In this document: one piece after another, positions 34,017-51,400 of the stretch
Layout: each line of letters starts with the position of its first letter
How positions within the stretch are numbered: the first letter of the stretch is position 1
NCBI GenBank assembly: GCA_009744235.1
Contig: WPHV01000018.1
Location: forward strand, 27,229-91,228
Reading direction: 5' to 3'
Length of the DNA stretch: 64,000 nucleotides
Source of the DNA: Gillisella vitis
GTDB taxonomy: Bacteria > Pseudomonadota > Alphaproteobacteria > Rhizobiales > Rhizobiaceae
Notes under the pieces: model-generated
Told to the model about the DNA's origin: nothing
What the model saw: the letters and a program-made list of their open reading frames with translations, nothing else
Database searches by the model: none
Translations under genes and position numbers: made by a program

Positions 34017-34091
34017 CGGGTACCAAGACACGAGAGAGCGATGGCTGATGGCTTGCAGATTGACTTCAAACCTCATTCTGCTAACCCTAGA

Positions 34092-34452
34092 GGCGGATGG
34101 TTTTCGGCCTGAAGAGATTGAGGCTGGAAAGCAAAAGGGAATGCGAAGGCGTGGACCCAGACAGGGCATGCCAAACGCAGCCGACCCCGCGACTGTAGAA
34201 CAGCGAGGGTTTTCAATCCGGTTTTGAAGATCCTTGCATGGCGGGCCGCGTGGTGTGGCCGGTGCGGTGAGCGGATAGGCCGGAAAAGCCACTGGAGTGG
34301 CAAAGCGATCTGCCGGGGTTGGACGCCTCTTTATCTACGAATCGTCCGCCTTTTCGATTTTGCCGTGGACTCCGGGAAGGTGAGGAAAATCTGCGAACTG
34401 GTGCCGTGATGGTACCGGTTTGACGCTGTGAGCCAGGAGACCTGCCGTCCGT
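34092..34452 (+). promoter_or_regulatory. Adenosylcobalamin (B12) riboswitch
   Basis: The conserved elements appear in the right order. CGGATGG (34094-34100) can close P1 with CCGTCCG (34445-34451). GCCGACCCCGCGACTGTAGA (near 34180-34199) matches the core. GCCACTGGAGTGGC follows near 34288-34301, CCGGGAAGGTGAGG near 34372, and the B12 box AGCCAGGAGACCTGCC lies at 34431-34446. It precedes the first gene of the cobalamin run by about 155 bases. Hairpins GGGC/GCCC and GGGG/CCCC without a T-run lie between, so control is probably translational or through these structures; that part is inference. Confidence 0.93.
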
Positions 34453-34606
34453 GACGGGCTTTACGCCCAATTGGGGGAGAGATCCCCGACGCCAGCACGG
34501 AGGTTGTCGTGGCGCAACAGATTGATCGCGGGCCTTTTAGGCTCCGCTTCACGGTCATTTGGCCGTTTTGTATTACGCCGCCTGCGCCCAATGGAGGCAG
34601 GTCATT

Positions 34607-40993: not shown

Positions 40994-41290
40994 TTACAGT
41001 CGCTCTTCCAGGCTCATGCGCTGATGAAGGACACGGAGGATGTCGATCCCATCGGCATTGATCCGGTAAAAGATCATGTGCGCGCCCTCGGAAAAACCCA
41101 AAAGGCCTTCCCTGATGTTGTCATGCTTTTGCCCTGAATAGGGAAATTCGGCGAGAAACTCGAACCTGTTGAATAAGGCTCGCAGATAATCGTTTCTCTG
41201 ACGCTTGCCCCAGGTTTTGTTGGTGTAACGACCGATATCCTCGACATCGAGACGTGCTATTTCAGTGACCCGATAGCTTTTGCCGCTCAT
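40994..41290 (-). CDS. parE: ParE/RelE-family toxin
   Basis: Predicted ribosome- or gyrase-targeting toxin of a type II module. The fold signature is clear: YRVTEIARLDVEDIGRYT, then KRQRNDYLRALFNRFEFLAEFPYSG, then the C-terminal MIFYRINADGIDILRVLHQRM. ParE-type members have this RVLHxRMD-like ending. Length 98. It overlaps the antitoxin stop by four bases. It is on the opposite strand to the cobalamin genes around it, which suggests insertion into the locus. Confidence 0.9.
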   Translation of the reverse strand: MSGKSYRVTEIARLDVEDIGRYTNKTWGKRQRNDYLRALFNRFEFLAEFPYSGQKHDNIREGLLGFSEGAHMIFYRINADGIDILRVLHQRMSLEERL

Positions 41291-41535
41291 TGTTCGCGGT
41301 CGAGTTTTTCATTGAGTGACTGGAGCGACCAATCCTCTGCAAATTCTCCACGATCTGCTTGTTGCCAGCCCTTGTCGATCTGATGGCGCAAAATTTTCAG
41401 CTTTTCTTCCCGCTCCTCCAACTCGCGGAGCGCGTCGCGCACCACTTCGCTCGCAGAGGCGTAGCGACCACTGTTTATCTGCTGCTTGATGAAGCCTTCC
41501 CAATGCGGGCCAAGTGTCAGGCTGGTTGTTGCCAT
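41287..41535 (-). CDS. parD: ParD-family antitoxin
   Basis: Ribbon-helix-helix antitoxin that neutralises ParE and represses the module promoter. The N-terminal strand is TTSLTLGPHWEGFIKQQINSGRYASASEVVRDALRELEEREEKL, a standard ParD DNA-binding domain, followed by a disordered acidic C-terminus that would bind the toxin. Length 82. It is the first gene of the pair, as is typical for ParDE. Confidence 0.92.
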   Translation of the reverse strand: MATTSLTLGPHWEGFIKQQINSGRYASASEVVRDALRELEEREEKLKILRHQIDKGWQQADRGEFAEDWSLQSLNEKLDREQ

Positions 41536-42421: not shown

Positions 42422-42720
42422 ACTGCATTCCCTGCCAAACGGTAATCGGTTTGAGAGGAAAATTTTCCGTGAGAATGATCTTGACCGTGGGCGGATCGTC
42501 TTCGGCTGAAATTGCGGTTTGACCCGGCTCGGGCGCTTCGCTATTCCTGCCCGCCAAGATGTGCGACGGCGCCTGTTCGACAGGCTGGAATCGTCCGGTG
42601 CGGCTGACCCAATCAGGGGGCCAATTCCGGAGCTGTCCCAAAGGCCATAGGAGATGCCGGAAAAACCGGCAGCTCCGGCGCTTCGTACATAAAACGAAAC
42701 GAAGCATGGAGCCTTTTGTC
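42422..42720. other. Divergent control region between TSUP gene and cbiX
   Basis: A gap of about 300 bases with no firm gene. The stretch 42589-42665 contains CCGGTGCG and CCGGAGCTGTCCC, which resemble parts of a B12 riboswitch core, but the GCAACTGT-like block and the B12 box are absent. A minus-strand frame ending at 42411 is open here, but its product has no family signature. Confidence 0.35.
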
Positions 42721-44067
42721 ATGGCAGAAAAACTCGGAATCATGGTCTGTGGACATGGTAGCCGCAACCAGAATGCGGCGCGCGAATTCGCTGTCATCGC
42801 TGAAGGGCTGAAGGCGCGCAATCCCGACCTGCCGGTCGAATACGGCTATCTGGAATTCTGCAACCCGGTGATCTCGGCGGGCCTCGACAGTCTGCGGGAA
42901 AAGGGCGTCACCCGGGTTCTGGCCGTGCCGGGCATGCTGTTTGCTGCGGGCCATGCCAAGAACGATATTCCCTCGGTGCTGAATACCTATCAGGCGCAGA
43001 ACCCCGGCATGGTGATCAACTATGGACGTGAGCTTGGTATCGACCTCAAGATGATCCGTGCCGCTGGTGACCGCATCCAGGCTGCCGTGGACGAGGCGAA
43101 TGGGCAACTGGGATTTGTCGATAAGCATGACACGCTGCTGATGGTGGTTGGGCGCGGCTCATCCGATCCCGATGCCAATTCCAACGCCACCAAGGTGATG
43201 CGGATGCTGTGGGAAGGCATGGGCTTTGGCTGGGGCGAAACCTGTTATTCCGGCGTGACCTTTCCGCTGGTGGAACCGGGCCTGACCCATGCCGCCAAGC
43301 TGGGCTACAAGCGTATTATCGTCTTCCCCTATTTCCTGTTTACTGGCGTGCTGGTGAAGCGGATCTACAGCTATACCGATGAGGTGGCGGCCCGCCATCC
43401 GGATATCCAGTTCGTCAAGGCCAGCTATCTCAATGATCATCCGCTGGTGCTGGATGCCTTTCAGGATCGGGTGCGCGAAATCCTCGAAGGCGCTGCGGTG
43501 ATGAACTGCCAGATGTGCAAATACCGCGAACAGGTTTTAGGCTTTGAGGCCGATATCGGCCAGCCGCAGGAAAGCCACCACCATCATGTCGAGGGCATTG
43601 GCGGCGGCCTGGAAGACTGTCCGTGCAAGGGCGATTGCGACGCCTCCTGCCGTGATCAGGCGTTCTGTCTCAAGCATGGCCTGCCGTGGACGCCGGTCCA
43701 TAGCCATGCCGATCCGGCCCCACTGCAACCGGCTTTCGACTACGGCGCCTCCACCACGCTTGGTGGTAAATACGGACATTTGCTGAATGCCAGCCCCGAT
43801 GCCGGGCTGGAAGCGGTGATGAATGCGCCGTCCAGCGGCAAGGCGCATGTCCACGAACACGGGCCGGATTGCGGCTGTGGTCATGATCATAGCCACGACC
43901 ACCATGGGCATGGTCACGCGCATGGAAATCATGATCACACGCACGACCAGGGGCACGACCACGGGCATGACCACCATCACGACCGTGAACACGCCCACAG
44001 CCACACCCATGCGCCTTATCCCCATGCGGATCATCCGCTCGGGCCAAAATCCATGAAGAAGACCTGA
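42721..44067 (+). CDS. cbiX: Sirohydrochlorin cobaltochelatase, CbiX long form
   Basis: CbiX inserts cobalt into sirohydrochlorin, the early-insertion step of the anaerobic pathway. The N-terminal domain has IMVCGHGSRNQNAAREF with the metal-binding histidine; the second has LLMVVGRGSSDPDANSN. It continues as the long form. An MNCQMC sequence (residues 261-266) is the MxCxxC iron-sulfur motif described for CbiX-L of Bacillus. Cysteines at 300, 302, 306, 310 and 316 follow. The last 65 residues are an extreme His/Asp repeat (HDHSHDHHGHGHAHG). The ATG at 42721 has GGAG upstream. The stop overlaps the next start (TGATG). Confidence 0.92.
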   Translation: MAEKLGIMVCGHGSRNQNAAREFAVIAEGLKARNPDLPVEYGYLEFCNPVISAGLDSLREKGVTRVLAVPGMLFAAGHAKNDIPSVLNTYQAQNPGMVINYGRELGIDLKMIRAAGDRIQAAVDEANGQLGFVDKHDTLLMVVGRGSSDPDANSNATKVMRMLWEGMGFGWGETCYSGVTFPLVEPGLTHAAKLGYKRIIVFPYFLFTGVLVKRIYSYTDEVAARHPDIQFVKASYLNDHPLVLDAFQDRVREILEGAAVMNCQMCKYREQVLGFEADIGQPQESHHHHVEGIGGGLEDCPCKGDCDASCRDQAFCLKHGLPWTPVHSHADPAPLQPAFDYGASTTLGGKYGHLLNASPDAGLEAVMNAPSSGKAHVHEHGPDCGCGHDHSHDHHGHGHAHGNHDHTHDQGHDHGHDHHHDREHAHSHTHAPYPHADHPLGPKSMKKT

Positions 44068-45734
44068 TGGCCTTGTTCGACCGCATCTTGATCGTGGACT
44101 GGTCCGGCGCAGCTAAACCGGTGACGGGCAAGAACTCCATCTGGGCCTGTCTTGCTGATTGCGGCGTGGCGGGGGCCGAGATCGTCTGGCTGGAAAACTT
44201 CCCCACCCGTGCCGCCTTCATGGCGCGGTTTGAGGACGTCGTCAGCGATGCGCTGGCGGCGGGCAAGCGCCTGCTGGCCGGTTTCGATTTCGCTTTCGGT
44301 TATCCCAGGGGTACGGCGGCGCGGGTGACGGGTGCTGCGGATTGGCAAAGCCTTTGGCGCGCCATTGCCCGTGAGGTTGAAGATGGTGCTGATAATGCCA
44401 ATAACCGTTTCGCGCTGGCTGCGCGCTGGAACCGGGACTATTTTGCTCGAGAACCGCGCTTCTGGGGCAGGCCGCAGGCGCTGGATCTGGACGGTCTGCC
44501 CGCAACAAAGCCCGCTGCACCCACCAGCGCGCCTTTTACCATGCGGCTTTCGGAGCGCCATGCGCGCGGCGCAAAATCCGTCTGGCAACTGGCCTATGCC
44601 GGGTCGGTTGGCAGCCAGAGCCTGCTGGGTATTGCCCGGCTGAGCCGTTTTCTCGACGGGCATCCGAACCGTGACAAGATTGCGGTCTGGCCGTTTGAGA
44701 CTGGCTTTACGGCTGGACATGCGGAAAAACTAGGCGGTGGACTTGGGCGACTCGATGGCCAGCCGGGCAGTTCCAGCGGCGGCCATCATGTCGTTTTGGC
44801 GGAAATTTATCCCTCACTGTTTTCGCTGGGGGATCATGAGAATGAAGTGAAGGATGCCGCGCAGGTGCGCCGGGTTGCGAGAGCCTTTGCCGGGTTCGAC
44901 GCAGCCGGGATGTTGGGTAGGCTGTTTGAACGGCCCCACATGCTCTCGGATGAGGAGATTGACGTGACGACGCAGGAAGAGGGCTGGGTGCTGGGCATCG
45001 GCCATGAGGATCTGGTTATGGAAGATCTGGCCGCAACAGGAGCGGAGCTTCCGTTAGGCGAGCTGGATGACGCTGCGGAAGAGGTCAGGCAGACCCCAGC
45101 ACTCGACTATATCCGCCAGCCAGCCGAGATCTACCGCCAGTCCTTCGAGACCATCCGGCGCGAGGCCAATCTTGACCGGTTTCCTGTCGCCATGCAGCCT
45201 CTGGTGATCCGCTTGATTCATGCCTGCGGCATGATTGATCTGGCTGATGACATCGTGTTTTCGCAGGGTGCCTTTGAGGCAGGCGCTGCGGCACTTGCCG
45301 CCGGTGCGCCCATTCTCTGCGATGCGGAAATGGTTCGGCACGGCATTATCCGCAGTCTTCTGCCAGCGGAAAACGAAGTGGTCTGCCTGATCAATGATGT
45401 CAGGGTGCGGCCACTGGCTGCCTGGGCAGGCAATACCCGCTCGGCAGCGCAGGTCAATCTTTGGGCTGGTCAGCTGGAAGGCGCTGTCGTGGCCATCGGC
45501 AATGCACCGACGGCGCTGTTTCGCCTCCTGGAACTGCTGGATCAGGGGGCACCGAAGCCAGCATTGATCCTCGGTCTGCCGGTCGGTTTTGTCGGGGCGG
45601 CTGAAAGCAAGGCAGAGCTTGCCGCCAACAGCCGGGGCGTGCCGTTCATTGCCGTTCAAGGGCGGCGAGGCGGTTCTGCCATGGCCTCGGCTGCGGTCAA
45701 TGCGCTGGCGGGAGGGCTCGGCGCCAATGACTGA
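44067..45734 (+). CDS. cobH: Two-domain protein: RNase H/DUF429-like domain fused to precorrin-8X methylmutase CobH
   Basis: The C-terminal 210 residues (from about 346) are CobH, which shifts the C11 methyl to C12 to give hydrogenobyrinate: DYIRQPAEIYRQSFETIRRE, VIRLIHACGMIDLADDIVFS with the catalytic histidine near 385, and LPVGFVGAAESKAEL. The first 325 residues are unrelated to CobH, and stand-alone CobH is about 210 long. They contain VDWSG (Asp11), GFDFAFGYP (Asp74), AEIYPSLF (Glu246) and KDAAQVRRVARAFA (Asp263), an acidic pattern like RNase H-fold DUF429 proteins. This assignment is inference. The reading frame is continuous. It overlaps cobL by eight bases. Confidence 0.85.
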   Translation: MALFDRILIVDWSGAAKPVTGKNSIWACLADCGVAGAEIVWLENFPTRAAFMARFEDVVSDALAAGKRLLAGFDFAFGYPRGTAARVTGAADWQSLWRAIAREVEDGADNANNRFALAARWNRDYFAREPRFWGRPQALDLDGLPATKPAAPTSAPFTMRLSERHARGAKSVWQLAYAGSVGSQSLLGIARLSRFLDGHPNRDKIAVWPFETGFTAGHAEKLGGGLGRLDGQPGSSSGGHHVVLAEIYPSLFSLGDHENEVKDAAQVRRVARAFAGFDAAGMLGRLFERPHMLSDEEIDVTTQEEGWVLGIGHEDLVMEDLAATGAELPLGELDDAAEEVRQTPALDYIRQPAEIYRQSFETIRREANLDRFPVAMQPLVIRLIHACGMIDLADDIVFSQGAFEAGAAALAAGAPILCDAEMVRHGIIRSLLPAENEVVCLINDVRVRPLAAWAGNTRSAAQVNLWAGQLEGAVVAIGNAPTALFRLLELLDQGAPKPALILGLPVGFVGAAESKAELAANSRGVPFIAVQGRRGGSAMASAAVNALAGGLGAND

Positions 45735-46968
45735 GGCCTCCAGCGATCCATGGCTGACCATTATCGGCATCGGTGATGGCGGTCTCGCCAGCCTGACGCC
45801 ACAGCAGCTTGCCCATCTCAGCGAAGCCCAGGTGCTGGTGCTGGGTGAGCGGTTGGAACATGCGGTGGCCGATGCCATACCCAATGTGCGGCGCATCCTC
45901 ACCTGGGGGGCAGGTTTTCGCGAAACGCTGGATCAGCTCCTGGCACTGCGCGGCACGCCGGTCGTGGTGGTGGCAACCGGCGATCCCATGCATTTCGGCA
46001 TAGGTGCTACGCTGCGGCGCTATCTGGCGCCGGAAGAAATGCGCATACTGCCCAGCCCCTCGGCCTTTTCGCTGGCCGCCGCCCGGCTTGGCTGGCCGCT
46101 GCAAAGCGTCGCGCAGATTTCCTTGCATGGCCGCCCGCTGTCCTACCTCAACCGGCATGTCCTGCCGGGTGCGCGCATCCTCGCCCTGACCTCCAATGCT
46201 GAAACGGTTTTTGAGGCCGCCGACCTGCTGGTGCGGCGCGGCTTTGGGGCCTCCATGCTGCATGTGCTGGAACATATGGGCGGCGCGCTGGAGCGCATTC
46301 TGCATGTCACCGCACAAGACCTGCTGGCGCAGCTGCCGGGGATTGCCGATTTCAACACGCTGGCCGTGGATTGCGCCGGTGCAGGGACGATTCTCTCGCC
46401 GGTGCCGGGCCTGCCGGACGATGCCTTCCGTCACGATGGGCAATTGACCAAGCGTGAGGTGAGGGCGGCAACGCTTGCACATCTGGCACCGTTTCCCAAT
46501 GCTTTACTCTGGGATGTCGGTGCCGGTTGCGGCTCCATCGCCATTGAATGGCTGCGCGCTGGCATGGGCACCCGTGCTATTGCAATCGAGCCGAAGCCGG
46601 AGCGGCTGGCGATGATGCGTGACAATGCCGAGGTGCTGGGCGTGCCGGATCTGGAGATTGTCGAGGCCGAAGCACCGGCGGGATTGTTGAAACTTGATCC
46701 GCCGGATGTGATTTTCATCGGTGGCGGTATCACCACCGAAGGTCTGTTTGAGGCCTGCTGGCAGGCGCTGAAGCCGGGCGGGCGGCTGGTCGCCAATGCC
46801 GTGACGCTGGAAGGCGAGGCACAGCTTGTGACGTTGCGTAACCTCTATGGCGGTGAGATGAGCCGGATTTCCGTGTCGCGCGCAGCACCCGTCGGTCGGT
46901 TCTGCGGCTGGAAATCGCTGATGCCGGTGACAACATGGAGTGTTGCCAAATGGAGCATTTCCAAATGA
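45727..46968 (+). CDS. cobL: Precorrin-6Y C5,15-methyltransferase (decarboxylating), CbiE-CbiT fusion
   Basis: CobL methylates C5 and C15 and decarboxylates the C12 acetate. The N-terminal half (residues 1-200) is the CbiE tetrapyrrole-methylase domain: IIGIGDGGLASLTPQQLAHL and VVVVATGDPMHFGIGATLRR. The C-terminal half (about 225-400) is CbiT, a Rossmann methyltransferase: LLWDVGAGCGSIAIEWLRAG and VIFIGGGITTEGLFEACWQAL. Length 413. The start at ATG 45727 lies inside the end of cobH. Confidence 0.96.
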   Translation: MTEASSDPWLTIIGIGDGGLASLTPQQLAHLSEAQVLVLGERLEHAVADAIPNVRRILTWGAGFRETLDQLLALRGTPVVVVATGDPMHFGIGATLRRYLAPEEMRILPSPSAFSLAAARLGWPLQSVAQISLHGRPLSYLNRHVLPGARILALTSNAETVFEAADLLVRRGFGASMLHVLEHMGGALERILHVTAQDLLAQLPGIADFNTLAVDCAGAGTILSPVPGLPDDAFRHDGQLTKREVRAATLAHLAPFPNALLWDVGAGCGSIAIEWLRAGMGTRAIAIEPKPERLAMMRDNAEVLGVPDLEIVEAEAPAGLLKLDPPDVIFIGGGITTEGLFEACWQALKPGGRLVANAVTLEGEAQLVTLRNLYGGEMSRISVSRAAPVGRFCGWKSLMPVTTWSVAKWSISK

Positions 46969-47699
46969 CGGGCAAACTCTATGGCCTGGGCCTTGGCCCC
47001 GGCGACCCGGAACTGATGACCTTGAAGGCGCATCGCATCCTGACCTCCGTTTCAGTGATTGCCTATCCGGCACCCGATACCGGCCCAAGCTTTGCCCGCC
47101 AGATTGCCGCGCCCTATCTGCGGGCCGACCAGCTTGAGGTGCCCATGATCGTGCCGATGCGCGTTGAGCGCTATCCGGCTCAGGAAATTTATGACGCTGC
47201 CGCTGTGACCCTGTCGCATCATCTGGATGCCGGTTCGGATGTGGCGGTGCTGTGCGAAGGCGATCCGTTTTTCTACGGCTCGTTCATGTATCTGTTCGAG
47301 CGGCTGGCGCATCGCTATCCGACCGAAGTCGTTCCCGGCGTCTCATCGATGATGGCCGCCGCCGCTGCCTATGGCCGACCGCTGGCGGCCCGCAACGATG
47401 TGCTGACCGTGCTGCCAGGCCCGCTGGAAAGTGATGTCCTGCGCGCCCGGATCGAAAGCGCCTCTGCCGTCGCCGTCATCAAGCTGGGGCGGCATTTCCC
47501 CCGCATCAGAGCGCTGATCGATACCATGGGCCTGACGGCCAATGCCGGTTATGTCGAGCGCGTGTCGCTGCAAAGCGAGCGCCTGCTGCCGCTGGGCGAT
47601 GTCGCAGAAGATGTTGCCCCGTATTTCTCGATGATCCTGATTTACAAGGGGGCAGAGGGCTGGGCGCTCAGTGCGGCTCCTCAACCGGAAAGACTTTGA
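46965..47699 (+). CDS. cobI: Precorrin-2 C20-methyltransferase
   Basis: Adds the C20 methyl that is later extruded on ring contraction. The tetrapyrrole-methylase signatures are LYGLGLGPGDPELMTLKAHR, VAVLCEGDPFFYGSFMYLFERL and VPGVSSMMAAAAAYGRPLAARND. Length 244. ATG 46965 overlaps the cobL stop (ATGA); further in-frame ATGs at 46950 and 46935 lie within cobL. The stop overlaps the cobJ start. Confidence 0.95.
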   Translation: MTGKLYGLGLGPGDPELMTLKAHRILTSVSVIAYPAPDTGPSFARQIAAPYLRADQLEVPMIVPMRVERYPAQEIYDAAAVTLSHHLDAGSDVAVLCEGDPFFYGSFMYLFERLAHRYPTEVVPGVSSMMAAAAAYGRPLAARNDVLTVLPGPLESDVLRARIESASAVAVIKLGRHFPRIRALIDTMGLTANAGYVERVSLQSERLLPLGDVAEDVAPYFSMILIYKGAEGWALSAAPQPERL

Positions 47700-49576
47700 T
47701 GACGACGCCCCAAAAAACCAGTGATGAGCAAACCGGCCCTGAAAAAACAGGCATTGAAAATACCGGCAATGCAAAACCCGCTATTGTCATTCTGATGCCA
47801 ACGGCGCTGGCCTTGGCGCGTCGCATTGCCGAGGCCGTTGGCGGTGAGGTTCACGCCGCCGCATCCCGTGTGGATGGGGCGGATCAGACCTTTGACGATG
47901 TGAAAAGCCATGTCCGGGCGTTGTTTTCTGCTGGCCGTCCGATCATTGCGGTCATGGCATCGGGTGCGTTGATCCGGCTGCTGGCACCATTGCTCACCGA
48001 CAAACAGTCCGAACCGCCGGTGCTGTGCGTGTCAGAGGCTTCCGTGGTGCCGTTGCTGGGTGGTCACCACGGCGCCAATGACATGGCGCGGGCAGTGGCT
48101 AAGGCCCTGGATGCCCATGCGGCAATTACCACGGCAGGCGATCTGCGCTTCGGTGTGGCGTTGGATGCGCCGCCTGAGGGCTATGTGCTGGTCAATCCTG
48201 AACACGCCAAGACCGTCATGGCCGAACTGGTGGCCGGGGCAAGCGTCCGCCTGGTTGGCGATGCGGATTGGCTGACGGCTTCCCGCCTTGCTTTTCACGA
48301 CGAGGGCAAGGTGACCCTGGCCGTCACCGATCAGCGCCGGACGGCGGGGCCGCTGGAGCTGGTCTATCACCCTCAAACCCTGGTTTTGGGCATGGGCTGC
48401 GAGCGCCATGCATCGGTGGAAGAGGCGATTGCGCTGGCGCAGCAGGCACTCGATATATCGGGTCTTGCTGCCCAAAGCCTTGCCGCGGTTGCCTCTATCG
48501 ACGTCAAGGCCGATGAGGCGGCAATCCATGCCGTTGCCGCGCATTTCGGTGTGCCCGCCCGGTTCTTTTCCGCCGAACGGTTGGAGCAGGAACGCCCCCG
48601 TCTGCAAAACCCGTCGGACGTGGTGTTTGCCGAAGTCGGTTGCCACGGCGTGGCGGAGGGTGCTGCGCTGGTGGTGGCCGGTTCGGATGGGGTGCTGGTT
48701 CTGCCCAAGATCAAATCGAAAGGCGTCACCGCTGCGCTTGGCCGCAGCGCACAGCCCATCAAAGTCGAAAACCTTGGCCGCGCCCGTGGGACATTGTTCG
48801 TGGTCGGCATCGGGCCGGGGTCGGAAGGGTGGCGCTCGCCGGAAGTCTCCCGCATGGTGGCGGCCTCGAGTGATCTCGTTGGCTATTCGCTTTATCTCGA
48901 CCTGCTGGGATCGCTCACTGAGGGCAAGGCGCGGCATGATTTCGACCTTGGCAAGGAAGAAGCCCGCGTGGTCCATGCGATGGAACTGGCGGGCGAGGGC
49001 AAGACGGTGGCGCTGGTCTGTTCCGGCGATGCCGGCATTTATGCCATGGCAACGCTGGTGTTTGAGCTGTTGGACAAGGGCGGAATTTCTGCGGGCGCGC
49101 AGCGGATCGAGGTTCAGGTTTCGCCGGGTATCTCCGCGCTTCAGGCTGCCGCCGCCCGGATCGGCGCGCCGCTTGGCCATGATTTCTGCACCATTTCACT
49201 CTCGGACCTGTTGACGCCCTGGGAGCATATTCAGCGTCGGGTCAAGGCGGCGGGCGAGGGTGATTTTGTCATCGCCTTTTACAATCCGGTGTCGATGAAG
49301 CGGCGCACGCAACTGGCCTATGCCCGCGACCAGCTCCTCACATATCGCCCGGCTGACACACCGGTCATTCTCGCCACCAATCTTGGCCGTCCTGGCGAGA
49401 CGGTGCGGGTGGTGCCACTGGCTGGCTTGAATGTCGATGATGTCGATATGCTGACGGTGGTCATCGTCGGTTCGTCAGAAAGCCGCACCGTCAAAACCGG
49501 TGACGGCAAGACCTGGGTTTACACGCCGCGCGGCTATTCCGGCAAGGCGGATACAGCAATGCAGAAGGACGCATGA
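47699..49576 (+). CDS. cobJ: Fused CbiG / precorrin-3B C17-methyltransferase CobJ
   Basis: A 625-residue fusion. Residues about 30-135 are CbiG_N (IIAVMASGALIRLLAPLL, GGHHGANDMARAVAKAL). About 145-225 is the central CbiG domain, and about 235-355 is the CobE/CbiG_C domain (LVLGMGCERHASVEEAIALA, VFAEVGCHGVAEGAALV). From about 365 the CobJ methylase follows (LFVVGIGPGSEGWRSPEVSR, VALVCSGDAGIYAMATLVFEL). CbiG opens the ring-A lactone and releases acetaldehyde in the anaerobic route; CobJ methylates C17 with ring contraction. The fusion offers both steps in one protein and fits the absence of CobF in this locus. Confidence 0.95.
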   Translation: MTTPQKTSDEQTGPEKTGIENTGNAKPAIVILMPTALALARRIAEAVGGEVHAAASRVDGADQTFDDVKSHVRALFSAGRPIIAVMASGALIRLLAPLLTDKQSEPPVLCVSEASVVPLLGGHHGANDMARAVAKALDAHAAITTAGDLRFGVALDAPPEGYVLVNPEHAKTVMAELVAGASVRLVGDADWLTASRLAFHDEGKVTLAVTDQRRTAGPLELVYHPQTLVLGMGCERHASVEEAIALAQQALDISGLAAQSLAAVASIDVKADEAAIHAVAAHFGVPARFFSAERLEQERPRLQNPSDVVFAEVGCHGVAEGAALVVAGSDGVLVLPKIKSKGVTAALGRSAQPIKVENLGRARGTLFVVGIGPGSEGWRSPEVSRMVAASSDLVGYSLYLDLLGSLTEGKARHDFDLGKEEARVVHAMELAGEGKTVALVCSGDAGIYAMATLVFELLDKGGISAGAQRIEVQVSPGISALQAAAARIGAPLGHDFCTISLSDLLTPWEHIQRRVKAAGEGDFVIAFYNPVSMKRRTQLAYARDQLLTYRPADTPVILATNLGRPGETVRVVPLAGLNVDDVDMLTVVIVGSSESRTVKTGDGKTWVYTPRGYSGKADTAMQKDA

Positions 49577-49577
49577 C

Positions 49578-50369
49578 ATGACGGTTTATTTCATCGGCGC
49601 CGGTCCCGGCGCGCCAGATCTGATCACCGTGCGGGGCTTGAGGCTGATTGAGCGCTGCCCGGTCTGCCTTTATGCGGGATCGCTGGTGCCGGAGGAAATC
49701 GTCAAGGCCGCGCCTGCTGATGCCCTGGTCAAGGATACCGCGCCGATGCATCTGGATGAGATCATCACCGAGATCCAGGCGGCCCATGCACGGGGCCAGG
49801 ATGTGGCGCGGGTGCATTCCGGCGATCCGGCCATCTATGGGGCGATTGCCGAACAGATGCGCAGGCTGGACGCGCTGGATATTCCCTATGACGTGGTGCC
49901 GGGCGTGCCCGCCTTTGCGGCGGCGGCTGCAAGGTTGAAGACCGAATTGACCCTGCCGGAAGTGGCTCAGACTGTCATCATTACCCGCACAGAGATGAAG
50001 GCATCGTCGATGCCGGAATTCGAGACGCTTGAAATTCTCGGTAAATCCCGCGCCACGCTGGCCATTCACCTGTCGATCCGCAATCTCAACCATATCCGCG
50101 ATACCCTGACGCCTTATTATGGCGAGGACTGCCCGGTTGTGATTGCTTACCGCGCCACATGGCCGGATGAATTGTTCATCCGCACCACGTTGAAGGATAT
50201 GGCGGAGGAGGTGCGCAAGGCGAAAATTACCCGAACGGCACTGGTCATGGTCGGCAAAGTGTTCGGCGATGTCGCCTTCCGCGATAGCGATCTCTACAAT
50301 TCTGATTTTTCCCATGTGCTGCGCAATGTGGGCAAGAAGGGTGTAACCAAGAAAAACCAGGCCGTCTGA
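49578..50369 (+). CDS. cobM: Precorrin-4 C11-methyltransferase
   Basis: CobM/CbiF methylates C11 of precorrin-4. Signatures are VYFIGAGPGAPDLITVRGLRLI, VCLYAGSLVPEEIV, VARVHSGDPAIYGAIAEQM and VVPGVPAFAAAAARLKTELTLPEVAQTVIITR, with a C-terminal DLYNSDFSH. Length 263. ATG 49578 is one base after the cobJ stop. It ends the run that began with cbiX. Confidence 0.96.
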   Translation: MTVYFIGAGPGAPDLITVRGLRLIERCPVCLYAGSLVPEEIVKAAPADALVKDTAPMHLDEIITEIQAAHARGQDVARVHSGDPAIYGAIAEQMRRLDALDIPYDVVPGVPAFAAAAARLKTELTLPEVAQTVIITRTEMKASSMPEFETLEILGKSRATLAIHLSIRNLNHIRDTLTPYYGEDCPVVIAYRATWPDELFIRTTLKDMAEEVRKAKITRTALVMVGKVFGDVAFRDSDLYNSDFSHVLRNVGKKGVTKKNQAV

Positions 50370-50440: not shown

Positions 50441-51400
50441 ATGCATAAGGTGATTTTCGATACGGACCCCGGCGTTGACGATGCCATGGCACTGCTGTTC
50501 CTGCATCACCATGCGGATATCGATCTGCTGGGCATCACCACGGTGTTCGGCAATGCCACGCTTGAGACCACGACCCGCAACGCGCTCTACCTGAAGCAGG
50601 AATGGAATATCGAGGCGCCTGTTGCCAAGGGTGCGGGCGAAACCTTCATCCCGCATCGCGTTAGCCATGAGCCACCGAAGTTCATTCACGGCGACGACGG
50701 ACTTGGCAATATCGGCGTGCCGGATGCCGTGGACGTGCCGCTCGATGCCCGCCCAGCGCATCGCTTTATCGTCGAGACCATCCGCGCCAATCCAGGCGAA
50801 GTACGGATCGTCGCAGTTGGGCGAATGACCAACCTTGCCAATGCCTTGAAGGAAGATCCTGAGATCGTTTCTCTGGTCAAGGACGTGGTCATCATGGGCG
50901 GTGCCTTCGATGTCAACGGCAATGTGACGCCCGCCGCCGAGGCCAATATCCACGGCGACCCGGAAGCGGCCGATATTGTCTTCACCGCCGGCTGGCCGGT
51001 GGTGGTGGTTGGTCTTGATGTCACGACGAAAACCGTGATGACCCGCCAGGCGCTATCCGACATCCGCGATGCAGCGGGCATGCGGGCGCAATTGCTGTTC
51101 GACCTGTCGCAATTCTACATCAAATTCTACGAGAGCCGGGTGCCTGATGGCATGGTGGTCCACGACAGCTGCGCCTGTGCTTATGTGGTGGCGCCGGAGC
51201 TGTTCACCACCCGCAGCGGCTCGATCCGCGTGGTCTGTGGCGGCATTGCCGATGGCCAGACCATTCAGAAGCCCGACAGCATGGGCTTCGGCCCGAGCGA
51301 TTGGGATGACCTGCCAAGCCAGGCGATCTGCACCGATATCGACGCCGAAGCGGTGCTGAAACTGATCCATGATACGATCGTGTCTGTCCAGGAAGCATAA
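50441..51400 (+). CDS. Inosine-uridine preferring nucleoside hydrolase
   Basis: Hydrolyses the N-glycosidic bond of ribonucleosides. The calcium-binding signature FDTDPGVDDAMALLFL is at the N-terminus. IVAVGRMTNLANALKEDPEIV and VVIMGGAFDVNGNVTPAAEANIHGDPEAA complete the family pattern. Length 319. AAAGGAC upstream supports ATG 50441. No transporter or base-salvage gene accompanies it; salvage of ribose from cobalamin lower-ligand chemistry cannot be concluded. Confidence 0.93.
   Translation: MHKVIFDTDPGVDDAMALLFLHHHADIDLLGITTVFGNATLETTTRNALYLKQEWNIEAPVAKGAGETFIPHRVSHEPPKFIHGDDGLGNIGVPDAVDVPLDARPAHRFIVETIRANPGEVRIVAVGRMTNLANALKEDPEIVSLVKDVVIMGGAFDVNGNVTPAAEANIHGDPEAADIVFTAGWPVVVVGLDVTTKTVMTRQALSDIRDAAGMRAQLLFDLSQFYIKFYESRVPDGMVVHDSCACAYVVAPELFTTRSGSIRVVCGGIADGQTIQKPDSMGFGPSDWDDLPSQAICTDIDAEAVLKLIHDTIVSVQEA

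What the first reader, a model, noticed from the sequence alone, without database searches (positions are those of the whole stretch)
44067..45734. CobH carries an N-terminal domain of about 325 residues with RNase H/DUF429-like motifs
The gene encodes 555 residues, although CobH is normally about 210. The reading frame is continuous, with start and stop codons overlapping its neighbours, so it is not an artefact of two adjacent genes. The added domain keeps four acidic positions in order (Asp11 in VDWSG, Asp74 in GFDFAFGYP, Glu246 in AEIYPSLF, Asp263), which recalls the RNase H fold of DUF429 proteins. A nuclease-fold domain tied to a corrin-ring mutase has no obvious role in the known pathway.
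Basis: partly seen in the sequence, partly recalled or inferred. Interest (0 to 1): 0.7.

Follow-up and report, generated by a model that had tools for sequence, protein, structure and literature searches.

The report
CobH fused to RNase-H-fold domain
The vitamin B12 enzyme CobH of this bacterium is joined by a flexible linker to a conserved domain predicted to have an RNase-H-like fold; related proteins are also joined to molybdenum-cofactor enzymes, which points to an undescribed helper in cofactor biosynthesis.

Summary

The surprise is X's company. Relatives are fused to or beside CobH, elsewhere beside CobU, CobB or CbiB; in Rhodobacterales X lies between, or is fused to, MobB and molybdotransferase Glp. 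In the window's family 18 of 18 X genomes carry the B12 gene CbiD. X is under purifying selection, usually single copy, and lacking in most CobH-bearing genomes sampled. Best reading: an accessory metal-dependent hydrolase of RuvC-like fold serving cobalamin and molybdenum-cofactor biosynthesis; activity and substrate are inferred, not shown.

The parts
44067..45734 (+). fused gene X-cobH, 555 aa
   Evidence: same fusion in relatives
44067..45041 (+). domain X, residues 1-325, predicted RNase-H-like fold
   Evidence: AF2 pLDDT 91.9, pTM 0.90; NCBIfam NF011066 unknown domain, E 1.4e-46, best stretch residues 4-212; fold comparison
44097..44099 (+). codon of D11, last residue of strand beta1
   Evidence: secondary structure; conservation
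44286..44288 (+). codon of D74, just after strand beta4, motif GFDFAFGYP
44802..44804 (+). codon of E246, end of strand beta5, motif AEIYPS
   Evidence: 41 of 42
44853..44855 (+). codon of D263, second residue of the last long core helix (262-279)
45045..45101 (+). linker, residues 327-345, predicted disordered, relaxed selection
   Evidence: pLDDT < 50 in the full-length model; dN/dS 0.31-0.73 in three pairs for residues 319-350
45102..45710 (+). CobH/CbiC precorrin-8X methylmutase domain (PF02570, residues 354-548)
   Evidence: H385, E366, R382, T457 and R458 invariant in 34 of 34 fused proteins of A2
42559..44067 (+). CbiX chelatase with MxCxxC and His-rich tail; its stop overlaps the X start
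   Evidence: PF01903 E 1e-53; sequence
45727..46968 (+). CobL-type methyltransferase
   Evidence: PF00590; start inferred from the overlap; name recalled
46935..47699 (+). CobI-like methyltransferase
   Evidence: named from position and sequence (recalled)
47696..49576 (+). CbiG-CobJ fusion
   Evidence: PF11760, PF01890, PF00590; name CobJ recalled
49500..50369 (+). CobM-like methyltransferase
   Evidence: named from position and sequence (recalled)
34081..34463 (+). cobalamin riboswitch upstream of the first cob genes of the region
   Evidence: RF00174, 45.6 bits, E 3.1e-8

Best explanation
X is a separately folded enzyme domain with a RuvC/RNase-H-like fold and an acidic, two-metal type active site (D11, D74, E246, D263). 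It hydrolyses a phosphate ester or anhydride, most likely in a small nucleotide or cofactor intermediate rather than in a long nucleic acid. It serves as an accessory or quality-control factor for cobalamin biosynthesis and, in a Rhodobacterales lineage, for molybdenum-cofactor maturation. In this window it sits in the order cbiX-X-cobH and is tethered to CobH by a disordered linker; the tether gives co-expression and proximity and does not change the mutase reaction. Shown: domain boundary, predicted fold, conserved acids, selection, gene company. Inferred: metal binding, hydrolysis, class of substrate, role of the tether.
Confidence: 0.45

Rival explanations
1. X is a true RNase-H/RuvC-type nuclease acting on RNA, DNA or hybrids, and its place in cofactor operons and its fusions are by-products of translational coupling between neighbouring genes.
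For: The nearest folds are nucleases or nucleic-acid proteins of the RuvC kind. Some relatives sit by pseudouridine synthase/RsmD-type genes or, in a distant one, by a RarA-type ATPase, CrcB and a pseudouridine synthase. Fused and split forms alternate often on the tree (fused label: 21 changes, at least 12 forced by starred branches), so losing the stop codon is easy.
Against: Company with cobH, cobU, cobB, cbiB and with mobB/glp is at separate kinds of place, which coupling alone does not explain. Most X are acidic (86 of 123). No PADLOC defence model matches the window protein or the one distant homologue tried.
Confidence: 0.25
2. X is a cobalamin-pathway factor in a stricter sense: it acts on an intermediate of the corrin pathway near the CbiX-CobH steps, and the molybdenum context is a later co-option.
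For: cbiX-X-cobH order is widespread and CobH-linked rows lie on both sides of the midpoint root, while the 8 molybdenum rows need 2 changes. 18 of 18 X genomes of the window's family have CbiD.
Against: 13 of 43 X genomes lack CbiC. CbiD does not separate X from non-X among CbiC genomes of the class (26 of 30 against 89 of 108). The steps around CobH have known enzymes (recalled).
Confidence: 0.2
3. X is a non-catalytic metal or ligand binding module, for example a metallochaperone for the cobalt (CbiX) and molybdenum (Glp) insertion steps.
For: Both main contexts contain a metal-insertion enzyme next to X (CbiX; Glp).
Against: The four acids sit in the RNase-H-type arrangement along the chain, and X next to CobU, CobB or CbiB has no metal-insertion gene as the annotated neighbour.
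Confidence: 0.1

Closest known systems
NCBIfam NF011066 / PRK14495, MobB-unknown domain fusion protein
   Same: Its unknown domain is homologous to X (E 1.4e-46 on the window protein; E 1.7e-116 over the whole MobB-X protein of L082).
   Different: The model describes the MobB fusion and gives the domain no function or fold. The window protein (159 bits) and L082 (390 bits) are both under its cut-off of 596; here the partner is CobH.
DUF429 (PF04250; COG2410/4328/4923), RNase-H-like superfamily
   Same: By eye: D near the start, a beta4-like motif (DMPIGLP in classic members, DFAFGYP in X), an E-x-[HYF]-P motif and a later acid, in the same order. PMC3985635 places DUF429 in the RNase-H-like superfamily, clade D (passages read).
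   Different: X does not reach the Pfam cut-off, profile-profile comparison is not significant, and X is longer, with a large conserved stretch between beta4 and beta5. More divergent DUF429 members lack the G and final P of the beta4 motif.
RuvC, Cas12a and Cas9 RuvC domains, terminase nucleases, pox resolvases, Spt6/Tex
   Different: 4-13% identity in the rows shown, no significant Foldseek E-value, different gene company.
Stand-alone CobH/CbiC precorrin-8X methylmutase
   Same: Complete C-terminal domain, E 6.6e-71.
   Different: Usual length about 210 residues (recalled; NCBIfam models are 205-214 positions long); here preceded by X and a linker.

Membership tests
CobH/CbiC precorrin-8X methylmutase (PF02570) | match over the curated cut-off across the whole domain | tested here: met
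   238.5 bits against a cut-off of 22.5, profile positions 1-194 of 196
CobH/CbiC precorrin-8X methylmutase (PF02570) | catalytic histidine | tested here: inconclusive
   H385 is invariant in 34 of 34 fused proteins; that it is the catalytic His is recalled and was not aligned to a characterised enzyme
RNase-H-like superfamily | order of core elements along the chain: three strands, helix A, fourth strand, fifth strand, last core helix | tested here: met
   AF2 elements E6-11, E25-33, E36-45, H48-64, E69-73, E242-246, H262-279; a short extra strand 205-207; the order of strands in the sheet was not seen
RNase-H-like superfamily | structural match to members | tested here: inconclusive
RNase-H-like superfamily | acids at the end of beta1, at beta4 and in the last helix | tested here: met
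   D11, D74, D263: 42 of 42 profile-found rows each, positions; not kept at D263 in 18 distant homologues
RNase-H-like superfamily | nuclease or phosphoryl-transfer activity | not testable with these tools
   needs purified protein
DUF429 (PF04250) | score over the Pfam gathering cut-off | tested here: not met
   no hit at E<=1 for the window protein; of 10 relatives one, L160, reaches 13.5 bits against 23
DUF429 (PF04250) | significant profile-profile similarity | tested here: not met
   probability 0.2% and 2.7%
NCBIfam NF011066 (MobB-unknown domain fusion) | over the cut-off with both MobB and the unknown domain | tested here: not met
   159.4 bits against 596; Pfam finds no MobB in the window protein; homologous in the unknown domain only

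The most novel reading that the evidence does not exclude
X is a new family of RNase-H-fold, metal-dependent enzymes whose substrate is a nucleotide-activated cofactor intermediate shared in chemistry by cobalamin and molybdenum-cofactor synthesis. CobU and MobA, in whose gene company X is found, are both guanylyltransferases that make a GDP-type linkage (recalled), so X could hydrolyse or proofread such R-P-P-guanosine products. This would be a small-molecule enzyme made out of a nuclease fold, and a common quality-control step in two metal-cofactor pathways.
Probability: 0.15. Interest if true: 0.85.

Novelty: new variant of a known kind. Interest (0 to 1): 0.55.

Why it matters
A conserved, selected, usually single-copy domain with a nuclease-like predicted fold turns up joined to enzymes of two unrelated metal-cofactor pathways, and no function for it was found in the searches made here. 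If it is a cofactor-specific hydrolase, it adds an unrecognised step or repair activity to cobalamin and molybdenum-cofactor synthesis and shows the RNase-H fold used on small molecules. It also warns that CobH annotations in these bacteria hide a second protein. The question is directly testable, because the domain exists alone in many genomes, is predicted with high confidence, and has four clear residues to mutate.

Tried and rejected
DUF429 membership: rejected as not significant, although motifs look alike by eye. Riboswitch link (an RNA-acting X tied to cofactor riboswitches): the window has a cobalamin riboswitch at 34081-34463, but of 10 relative loci scanned with Rfam at gathering thresholds none had a cobalamin or molybdenum-cofactor riboswitch, only two tRNAs; dropped. 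Anti-phage defence: no PADLOC match. CbiD as a marker that separates X from non-X among CbiC genomes of the class: no difference (26 of 30 against 89 of 108). PDB sequence search with residues 1-328: nothing at E<=10. Second copy in the own genome: only a 31-residue match at E 0.23. Foldseek at E<=0.001: none.

Literature, all in the open-access library held here: DUF429+precorrin 0 papers; words beginning DUF429 14 papers listed, several of them about DUF4297, one (PMC3985635) read in passages; precorrin-8X methylmutase+fusion+RNase H 0; MobB+fusion+molybdopterin+RNase H-like 0; CbiX/cobalamin/Rhizobiaceae/cobH 12 listed, none opened; precorrin-8X methylmutase+gene fusion+cobalamin 1 listed, not opened; DUF429+nuclease+cofactor 0; CobH+fused+domain of unknown function+cobalamin biosynthesis 0.

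Gene names in relatives rest on BLAST to a small reference set and on Pfam for selected neighbours only. In the tree labels L021 and L033 were counted as CobH-adjacent although their contigs end before CobH could come, and L141 as adjacent from the coordinates. The tree is the quick kind without mixture, has 123 rows including the window, and leaves out the two plasmid loci L084 and L085 and all 18 distant loci. Of 30 genomes with weaker X matches, 18 loci were fetched and none is in the 43.

Full report
What is there. The frame at 44067-45734 (+) is open for 555 codons. It begins over the stop of a CbiX gene and ends over the likely start of CobL. Pfam assigns residues 354-548 to CbiC/CobH at 238.5 bits. 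No Pfam family matches residues 1-325 at E<=1. NCBIfam's MobB/unknown-domain model NF011066 matches with E 1.4e-46, best stretch residues 4-212. So the domain, called X here, is known to annotators only as an unknown part of another fusion.

It is real and selected. A scan of genome contigs with X found 128 relatives, of which the best 80 were kept. In 39 of the 80, X and a full CobH are in one ORF; 1 more is cut inside CobH by a contig end; in 14 CobH is a separate neighbouring ORF; 2 contigs end too early; 24 show no CobH. Against four relatives X has dN/dS 0.10-0.19 and CobH 0.03-0.07, while the linker is relaxed at 0.31-0.73 in the three pairs that could be measured. The own genome has one X. 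In a sample of 385 genomes of the class, 73 have a match at E<=1e-5; 43 of these are strong (E 3.4e-59 or better) and the next is at 8.5e-27. Of the 43, 40 list one match; the others add a piece at a contig edge (G055) or a weaker match (G099, E 1.2e-9; G236, E 4.6e-18).

Is it DUF429? DUF429 was put into this superfamily by PMC3985635 (passages read). X and the classic DUF429 members look alike by eye at the first Asp, at the beta4 motif (DFAFGYP against DMPIGLP) and at an E-x-[HYF]-P motif. But Pfam DUF429 does not hit X (of 10 relatives one reaches 13.5 bits against 23), and two profile-profile runs are not significant. I call it DUF429-like, not DUF429.

Where X lives. Of the 43 strong X genomes (window included), 11 have X fused to or next to CobH, 2 next to CobU (L132, L142), 1 with an ORF overlapping CobB/CbiA (L152), 1 divergent from CbiB (L137), and 3 in fdhD-mobA-mobB-X-glp, fused to Glp in two (L156, L158, L159). 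For the remaining 25 I recognised no such neighbour; not all their neighbours were annotated. If about 25 of 4000 genes are cob genes, chance would put one beside X in about 1% of genomes (rough estimate, mine), against 15 of 43 seen; kinship makes the 15 fewer than 15 independent events. More molybdenum examples from other sources: fusion to Glp in L077 and Salipiger, fusion to MobB in L082, free between MobB and Glp in Ruegeria and in L072, L078, L083. Other company: pseudouridine synthase and/or RsmD-type genes in L041, L045, L048 (names RluB and RsmD recalled from the Pfam families), zinc alcohol dehydrogenases in L066 and L148, a fusion to hydantoinase A in L146, periplasmic-binding proteins in L138 and L140. 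Distant relatives (18 loci fetched) were annotated in one case, L171: a RarA/MgsA-type ATPase before X, and CrcB, a pseudouridine synthase and a HAD hydrolase after it.

History and co-occurrence. On a quick tree of 123 X sequences the CobH-linked rows lie on both sides of the midpoint root, while the 8 molybdenum rows need 2 changes. So the cobalamin link looks old and the molybdenum link younger, with the caution that the root is only a midpoint. Fused and split forms alternate often (fused label 21 changes, at least 12 forced by starred branches). CbiC is in 30 of 43 X genomes against 108 of 342 others (Fisher p 2e-6, kinship not corrected). In the window's family (unnamed in the tool; Rhizobiaceae by the nearest named relatives), X at E<=1e-30 occurs in 18 of 171 genomes and all 18 have CbiD, which 99 of 171 have (p 5e-5, same caution). 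Yet 13 of 43 X genomes lack CbiC, and 108 of 138 CbiC genomes lack a strong X: X is an accessory, not an essential enzyme of the pathway. Among CbiC genomes of the class, CbiD is about as common without X (89 of 108) as with it (26 of 30). In other classes of the phylum only two weak matches were seen among the 299 genomes, which also include members of the class.

Reading. A usually single-copy domain that keeps the acids of an RNase-H-type site and recurs with cobalamin genes at four kinds of place, and with molybdenum-cofactor genes in Rhodobacterales, is best explained as an accessory metal-dependent hydrolase of cofactor metabolism. Its mostly acidic charge (86 of 123 below pI 7; window 5.5) mildly favours a small substrate, but X outside cofactor company has median pI 7.0 and the CobB-linked one 9.3. 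The shared chemistry I can name is guanylyl transfer by CobU and MobA (recalled), which gives the boldest version: hydrolysis or proofreading of a GDP-linked intermediate. That step is inference. The main rival is an ordinary nucleic-acid nuclease carried along in operons.

Window setting. The region reads riboswitch (34081-34463), a CobU-like ORF and CobW (named from sequence, not tested), CobN and CobO, a ParDE pair and a TauE exporter on the other strand, CbiX, X-CobH, CobL, CobI, CbiG-CobJ, CobM, a nucleoside hydrolase, then CbiJ/CobK, CbiD, a tetrapyrrole methylase and CobB. CbiX, CbiG and CbiD are the set of a cobalt-early type pathway (recalled). The nearest named relatives are Agrobacterium vitis strains, 92-93% identical in X.

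Noticed in passing
window 40994-41535, - strand: A ParE toxin / ParD antitoxin pair (PF05016 E 4.1e-16, PF03693 E 1.1e-20) sits inside the cob region between CobO and TauE; ORFs of similar size recur there in several relatives.
   Followed up: partly
window 34081-34463, + strand: Cobalamin riboswitch upstream of the CobU-like/CobW/CobN/CobO genes; it was the only Rfam match of the window, so none was found in front of cbiX-X-cobH.
   Followed up: partly
window 42559-44067: CbiX carries a long His-rich tail and a MxCxxC motif, a possible cobalt store or Fe-S site (read from the sequence).
   Followed up: no
window 50441-51400: An inosine-uridine-type nucleoside hydrolase (PF01156) directly follows CobM and recurs there in the nearest relatives.
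   Followed up: no
L146 3357-6677: An ORF of 1106 residues joins X to a hydantoinase/oxoprolinase A protein, followed by hydantoinase B.
   Followed up: no
L171, and L169-L186: A distant branch of X: in L171 it lies between a RarA/MgsA-type ATPase and a CrcB-type gene, with a pseudouridine synthase downstream; similar gene sizes recur in several of the other loci.
   Followed up: partly
   Followed up: no
L088, L089: Classic DUF429 genes lie next to what looks like a pyridoxal kinase gene (sequence read by eye, name recalled), another hint of DUF429-type proteins near cofactor genes.
   Followed up: no
L075, L081: Stand-alone X in two bins labelled Chloroflexi/Chloroflexota, while the other record titles of that call look alphaproteobacterial; possible transfer or mis-binning.
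   Followed up: no
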